Made by a program: the position numbers and the translations under genes. Positions 61,056 to 61,108 of a stretch of DNA of 64,000 bases are shown here, piece after piece. This DNA is from Ascidia mentula. Taxonomy: Eukaryota; Chordata; Ascidiacea; Phlebobranchia; Ascidiidae. The DNA is taken from positions 1,431,001 through 1,495,000 of the forward strand of contig OX387197.1 of NCBI GenBank assembly GCA_947561715.1, read 5' to 3'. Each line of letters opens with the position of its first letter. Position 1 is the first letter of the stretch. The notes beneath the pieces are model-generated. The model did no database searches. It saw only the letters and a program-made list of their open reading frames with translations, and had not been told where the DNA came from.

Positions 61056-61108
61056 AGCTGCACTGATGAGACCTGACAGGTCGAAACAGTGGTCATTTGT
61101 CTGCAGCT
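61056..61108 (+). ncRNA. Hammerhead ribozyme, apparently complete
   Basis: All parts of a type I hammerhead are present. Helix I AGCTGCA (61056-61062) pairs with TGCAGCT (61102-61108) over seven bases. The core is CTGATGA (61063-61069). Helix II GACCT/AGGTC has a GAC loop (61070-61082) and starts with the required G-C pair. GAAA is at 61083-61086. Helix III ACAG (61086-61089) pairs with TTGT (61097-61100). C at 61101 is the cleavage base. It sits in a TRPM remnant intron inside a palindromic repeat. Self-cleavage is predicted from the motif alone. Confidence 0.7.

What the first reader, a model, noticed from the sequence alone, without database searches (positions are those of the whole stretch)
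61056..61108. Complete hammerhead ribozyme motif in a TRPM remnant intron
The segment meets every rule of the motif. The core is CTGATGA and GAAA. Helix I has seven pairs. Helix II has five pairs beginning with G-C. Helix III has four pairs (one G-T). The C is at the cleavage position. Chance assembly of all of these in 53 bases is unlikely, and the same layout occurs elsewhere in the array. A self-cleaving RNA inside a host intron, copied by segmental duplication, is worth testing as a mobile or regulatory RNA.
Basis: partly seen in the sequence, partly recalled or inferred. Interest (0 to 1): 0.8.

Follow-up and report, generated by a model that had tools for sequence, protein, structure and literature searches.

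The report
Fossil self-cutting retroelement in a gene
The hammerhead ribozyme motif in this ion-channel gene intron is one arm of an old, small mobile element whose other copies suggest, by the way they are inserted, that a Penelope-type reverse transcriptase moved them.

Summary
It misses Rfam's type I cut-off (19.0 against 34 bits).

It is the right arm of a 178-bp head-to-head insertion (60960-61137) with a 14-bp target-site duplication, found at the same intron position at 14 TRPM loci.

Dispersed relatives include 284-bp tandem non-coding units with one hammerhead each, the anatomy of a metazoan retrozyme. Of 43 dispersed loci, 39 are head-to-head; in 36 of the 39 one end is short and the other carries a ~31-nt tail; 35 of 43 show target duplications. 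Junctions differ and show microhomology. These are published features of Penelope-like elements (PLEs), which this genome also carries.

In TRPM the motif diverges like its surroundings and pairs with its partner arm, so host regulation is unlikely. Cleavage, circular RNA and the PLE partner are inferred. What is new is insertion-site evidence that PLE machinery moves retrozymes.

The parts
60946..60959 (.). Left copy of the 14-bp target-site duplication ATATTTTTAACTTC
   Evidence: Identical to 61138-61151
60960..61137 (+). Head-to-head retrozyme-like insertion, 178 bp
   Evidence: Bounded by the duplication; relatives
60965..61015 (-). Left arm, minus-strand half; carries a degenerate hammerhead on the minus strand (core at 61006 downwards)
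   Evidence: Inverted repeat I1, 86% complementary; relaxed descriptor hit; RF00008 21.2 bits against a cut-off of 48.5
61016..61053 (.). 38-nt spacer between the arms, with the head-to-head junction
   Evidence: junction mapping of relatives
61056..61108 (+). Hammerhead motif, right arm; expected cut 61101/61102 (cleavage not shown)
   Evidence: RF00163 19.0 bits against a cut-off of 34
61109..61137 (+). Tail side of the insertion, beyond helix I
   Evidence: Compared with the ends of other copies
61138..61151 (.). Right copy of the target-site duplication
60800..60931 (+). TRPM exon upstream of the intron
   Evidence: Similar to TRPM channels in the PDB (best E 2.3e-06); 100% in tblastn with its own translation
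61236..61334 (+). Next TRPM exon
5595..5775 (+). Second copy of the insertion in the window, hammerhead damaged (C17 is G, helix II mismatch)
5581..5594 (.). Left target-site duplication of the second copy, same 14 bp
5776..5789 (.). Right target-site duplication of the second copy

Best explanation
The motif is one arm of a fossil retrozyme insertion: a small, non-coding retroelement with a type I hammerhead. Proposed cycle: tandem 284-bp units are transcribed; the hammerhead cuts the RNA to unit length; the unit is circularised; a Penelope-like (RT plus GIY-YIG) enzyme cuts the target with a stagger of about 12 bp and primes reverse transcription on both broken ends from two neighbouring start sites just 3' of the ribozyme; each cDNA runs from part of a lap to several laps along the template; the two cDNAs are joined at short microhomology. 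The result is a head-to-head insertion with one short and one tailed end. One such insertion landed in an intron of an ancestral TRPM gene and was copied passively with the gene. Shown here by sequence: motif, insertion, target duplications, tandem units, head-to-head layout, unequal ends, mostly independent junctions, shared variants, presence of PLEs. Inferred: cleavage, circularisation, PLE as the enzyme, priming at both ends.
For: Tandem 284-bp units with one hammerhead each, 62 of 76 array arms intact by my criteria, unit 47.5% GC and longest ATG frame 46 aa over four units. Target duplications: 35 of 43 loci score 8 or more against 3.6% of 1,802 swapped flank pairs. Head-to-head 39 of 43; one short and one long end in 36 of these 39, median difference 31 nt. 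Junctions: placed in 36 of 43 loci, 30 distinct by my count of the listing; overlaps of 2 nt or more in 20 of 36 against 15.6% of random joins. Shared variants: 278C on both strands in L064, L068, L073 and 4T on both strands in L062; 12 shared arm variants in 22 loci against 3.1 by permutation. PLEs in the genome: 121 GIY-YIG matches, one frame with RVT_1 and GIY-YIG, neighbours on opposite strands 17 minus-plus and 0 plus-minus. Published PLE features: PMC3846280 and PMC11167929.
Against: No copy tested reaches an Rfam hammerhead cut-off. Core sites are not more conserved than other sites after insertion (solo 5.57% against 5.56%, arrays 1.73% against 1.68%), and covariation is almost absent: 2 double-changed cells stay paired and 3 are broken. 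Predicted folds of the isolated arm and of the 284-nt unit form helices I and II but replace helix III. Pooled over array loci, opposite-strand pieces of one locus are no more alike (2.34% different) than pieces of different loci (2.22%). Both genome queries were palindromic, which favours palindromic copies, and the end classes were set after seeing the ends. The PLE terminal repeats could not be read, and the one PLE piece held shows no similarity to the unit. No RNA data.
Confidence: 0.75

Rival explanations
1. Same retrozyme, but the inverted structure arises by snap-back self-priming: a cDNA or antisense template folds back and copies itself, as suggested for rotifer Penelope elements (PMC3846280, Discussion read).
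For: Shared variants between the two halves and short overlaps at the junction fit a fold-back copy too; it is the published suggestion for palindromes in PLEs.
Against: A fold-back copy should repeat the same end, whereas 36 of 39 head-to-head loci have two different ends about 31 nt apart. Several arrays have very different numbers of units on the two sides.
Confidence: 0.2
2. A MITE or fold-back DNA transposon whose terminal inverted repeats happen to carry a hammerhead-like motif.
For: Palindromic copies of 150-200 bp dispersed in the genome.
Against: Unequal ends, junctions that differ between loci, tandem 284-bp units, long duplications mostly of 9-14 bp.
Confidence: 0.04
3. A functional, host-adopted intron ribozyme that regulates TRPM transcripts, kept by selection.
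For: The motif is complete in the window copy, on the gene's strand, and at four other TRPM loci. Core sites differ a little less than other motif sites (5 of 163 against 28 of 521; no significance test was run).
Against: 5 of 14 TRPM right arms intact; differences 4.8% in the motif, 4.2% in left arm and spacer, 1.6% in the upstream exon; buried in a hairpin of -93.3 kcal/mol.
Confidence: 0.04
4. No ribozyme at all: a hairpin or microRNA-like repeat that matches the hammerhead by accident.
For: The best weak Rfam matches are microRNA precursors; the insertion is a stable hairpin; Rfam hammerhead scores are below cut-off.
Against: The microRNA matches are far below cut-off (for example 26.5 against 67 bits). 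Tandem units carry the whole motif once per unit. The full motif is not reached by chance in 40 shuffles.
Confidence: 0.08

Closest known systems
Metazoan non-LTR retrozymes (PMC7229834; outline, sections 13, 14 and 17 read, passages)
   Same: Small (here 284 bp) non-coding tandem repeats with a type I hammerhead, GC under 50%, target duplications longer than 4 bp, in a genome that also holds PLEs.
   Different: Copies are mostly head-to-head with unequal ends; the word 'inverted' does not occur in that paper's main text. The motif in the window copy is predicted to be blocked by its partner arm. Circular RNA not tested.
Penelope-like elements (PMC3846280, passages and Discussion; PMC11167929, main text)
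   Same: Head-to-head arrangement, a tail of about 31 nt on one side only, short target duplications, hammerhead next to the reverse-transcription start.
   Different: No reverse transcriptase or endonuclease gene in the unit (longest ATG frame 46 aa), so not a PLE itself.
Plant LTR retrozymes and viroid-like RNAs (as described in PMC7229834, and PMC7761336, passages)
   Same: Hammerhead blocked by a complementary stretch.
   Different: Plant retrozymes have type III hammerheads, LTRs and 4-bp duplications; here type I, no LTR seen, duplications of about 12 bp.

Membership tests
Type I hammerhead ribozyme | Conserved core, three helices in type I order, allowed base at C17 | tested here: met
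Type I hammerhead ribozyme | Rfam RF00163 score at or above the curated cut-off | tested here: not met
   19.0 against 34 bits; none over cut-off in the window or in 15 related loci
Type I hammerhead ribozyme | Compensatory changes in the helices | tested here: inconclusive
   2 double-changed cells paired, 3 broken
Type I hammerhead ribozyme | Self-cleavage | not testable with these tools
   Needs in vitro transcription
Metazoan retrozyme | Non-coding tandem repeats of 150-450 bp, each with a type I hammerhead motif | tested here: met
   284-bp units; longest ATG frame 46 aa
Metazoan retrozyme | GC under 50% and target duplications longer than 4 bp | tested here: met
   47.5% GC; duplications in 35 of 43 loci
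Metazoan retrozyme | No LTR, primer-binding site or polypurine tract | not tested
   Not searched for
Metazoan retrozyme | Expressed as linear and circular RNA | not testable with these tools
   No RNA data
Penelope-like element | RT and GIY-YIG reading frame | tested here: not met
   Longest ATG frame in the unit is 46 aa
Penelope-like insertion signature (mode of insertion) | Head-to-head copies, tail of about 31 nt on one side, short target duplications | tested here: met
   39 of 43, 36 of 39, 35 of 43; palindromic queries may favour such copies
Penelope-like insertion signature (mode of insertion) | Sequence shared with an autonomous partner at the reverse-transcription start | tested here: inconclusive
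   No similarity in the one PLE piece held, which lacks the terminal repeat; ten terminal pieces were asked for 16 times without answer (first, last)

The most novel reading that the evidence does not exclude
Each two-sided retrozyme insertion is made from a single RNA circle that two PLE reverse transcriptases copy at once. Because both sit on one template they must use different start sites, one per broken target strand, so every such insertion gets exactly one short and one tailed end, and both halves carry the same template variants. This would explain the one-sided tail of PLEs and identify the enzyme that moves animal retrozymes.
Probability: 0.35. Interest if true: 0.75.

Novelty: new variant of a known kind. 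Interest (0 to 1): 0.55.

Why it matters
How animal retrozymes are mobilised is left open in the papers I read: PLEs are named as a strong or likely candidate (PMC7229834; PMC7761336, passages). How PLE insertions acquire inverted copies is also left open (PMC3846280), and later steps of PLE insertion await experiment (PMC11167929). This family offers dozens of readable insertions whose ends, junctions and template variants bear on both questions, and the units are small enough for in vitro tests.

Tried and rejected
Rfam on the window and on 15 related loci gave no family above cut-off; weak microRNA, snoRNA and lncRNA matches are judged chance or hairpin by-products. A genome search with RF00163 found nothing, but its controls did not ring and 73 of 27,659 candidates were scored, so it says nothing. 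A MITE origin was rejected on unequal ends and variable junctions. A regulatory intron ribozyme was rejected mainly on divergence among TRPM copies. Covariation was counted: 2 double-changed cells stay paired, 3 broken. The host species was not identified. The literature check rests on searches in a library that lacks most subscription journals; 'retrozymes' with 'head-to-head' gave 0 papers and 'twin priming' with 'Penelope-like' gave 3, none opened. PMC4209133 is not held. PMC4918200 was seen in listings only.

Rows and caveats. The 43 dispersed loci are the de-duplicated non-TRPM places among those fetched, not all matches. L026 and L029 share flanks, as do L056 and L057, so at most 41 are independent. 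The three end exceptions (L024, L026, L029) are diverged copies where the match stops early. L079 merges two neighbouring copies into one row. In one search the variant listing was printed for 11 of 20 array loci. In one search the 29 TRPM rows include two that are not true arms of the insertion (L010 at 1607, L012 at 67). In one search the downstream exon shows 13.6% differences, which I put down to loci that lack or have damaged that exon.

Full report
The hammerhead at 61056-61108 is as described and is the only strict match in 64 kb on both strands, with none in 40 shuffled windows. Rfam gives 19.0 bits for the type I model against a cut-off of 34, and no family is above cut-off in the window. 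The minimum-energy fold of the isolated arm shows helices I and II but not III.

What surrounds it. The motif is the right arm of an inverted repeat, 60965-61015 with 61054-61104, 86% complementary. The left arm carries a degenerate hammerhead on the minus strand (relaxed descriptor). The pair lies in an insertion of 178 bp, 60960-61137, flanked by the 14-bp direct repeat ATATTTTTAACTTC. A second copy at 5595-5775 has the same flanking repeat, but its C17 is a G. The intron lies between two open exons similar to TRPM channels.

Copies in the genome. A search with the element gave 84 matches, with 40 of 876 candidates scored. Fourteen loci carry the insertion, or what is left of it, at the same TRPM intron position: 12 on the window's contig and 2 on another. 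The other matches are dispersed. A second search, with a dispersed copy, gave 168 matches, with 40 of 1,929 candidates scored. These counts are lower bounds, and both queries were palindromic. The second search showed arrays of 284-bp direct repeats with one hammerhead per unit. The unit is non-coding (longest ATG frame 46 aa) and 47.5% GC. This is the anatomy described for metazoan retrozymes (PMC7229834, sections read).

How copies are inserted. I took 43 de-duplicated dispersed loci from those fetched, 23 of single size and 20 array loci. In 35 of 43 the two flanks match with a score of 8 or more; among 1,802 swapped flank pairs the share is 3.6%. Thirty-nine of 43 are head-to-head: minus-strand units, a junction, plus-strand units. 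In 36 of these 39 one end stops at unit position 56-73 and the other at 84-105, median difference 31 nt; the other three are diverged copies in which the alignment stops early. With end classes that I set after seeing the ends, independent ends would pair this regularly with a probability near 1e-11. The four remaining loci are L067, L069, L072 and L077; L069 and L072 look like single runs with a duplication. A junction could be placed in 36 of 43 loci, and by my count of that listing there are 30 distinct positions, so the inversion is mostly made anew at each insertion. Twenty of 36 junctions overlap by 2 nt or more, against 15.6% of random joins; 8 of 36 have extra bases.

One template for both halves. 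Variant 278C occurs on both strands in L064, L068 and L073, and 4T on both strands in L062. In 22 single-size loci the two arms share 12 variants against 3.1 expected by permutation. Against this, pooled over array loci, opposite-strand pieces of one locus differ as much (2.34%) as pieces of different loci (2.22%); most of those differences sit in L061, L066, L071 and L079. Gene conversion between arms could also make the arms alike.

The machinery. Penelope-like elements are described with head-to-head pseudo-LTRs, a 31-bp tail on one of them and duplications of 8-10 bp (PMC3846280, passages, Discussion). A purified PLE protein starts reverse transcription at two adjacent internal sites that match the tail, and cuts and extends both strands at AT-rich DNA (PMC11167929, main text). 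In that paper hammerhead mutants still inserted in vitro, so the ribozyme is not needed for the insertion step itself. The host genome has 121 listed GIY-YIG matches, 150 of 382 candidates scored; one open frame carries RVT_1 and GIY-YIG. Among neighbouring GIY-YIG matches under 10 kb apart and on opposite strands, 17 are minus-then-plus and none plus-then-minus, the same polarity as the retrozyme. PLE terminal repeats could not be read, so the partner is not named.

State of the copy in TRPM. Five of 14 right arms at TRPM loci are intact by my criteria. Differences from the majority run at 4.8% in the motif, 4.2% in left arm and spacer, 8.4% in the rest of the intron downstream and 1.6% in the upstream exon; core sites 5 of 163, other motif sites 28 of 521. 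The 178-nt RNA folds to -93.3 kcal/mol with the motif paired to the other arm (z -12.7). I conclude that this copy is a fossil carried along by gene duplication, cleaving poorly if at all.

What is established and what is inferred. Established by sequence: motif, insertion, duplications, tandem units, layout, unequal ends, variable junctions. Inferred: cleavage, circular RNA, PLE as the enzyme, priming at both target ends. Main weaknesses: palindromic queries, missing PLE termini, Rfam scores below cut-off, core sites no better kept than others and hardly any covariation, no RNA data.

Noticed in passing
L081 (G000:C67:6136900-6141000) and the table: Autonomous Penelope-like elements stand in head-to-head arrays, including tandem copies with a 2,870-bp period; 17 opposite-strand neighbours are minus-plus and 0 plus-minus.
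   Followed up: partly
window 36873-36915 and 23849-23891: Two fragments matching unit positions 14-56 on the minus strand at 88% and 81%, set in similar flanking sequence: old half copies multiplied with a larger duplicated segment.
   Followed up: partly
G000:C1:1181975-1766957 (L001-L012) and C52 (L013, L014): A TRPM gene array: the exon before the intron is found in 14 of 14 loci, the next exon complete in 9 of 14; L006 has a stop in the first.
   Followed up: partly
L070:2540-2782: A GIY-YIG-like stretch (tblastn E 1e-8 with the L081 frame) lies about 290 bp beyond the end of a retrozyme array.
   Followed up: no
window about 63880-63960, minus strand: By eye, the reverse strand reads like a YADD reverse-transcriptase motif of another retroelement (sequence); no search was run.
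   Followed up: no
window 61353-61382: Two adjacent copies of a 15-bp repeat (TGCGCGTTAACCAAC and a 93% copy) downstream of the second TRPM exon.
   Followed up: no
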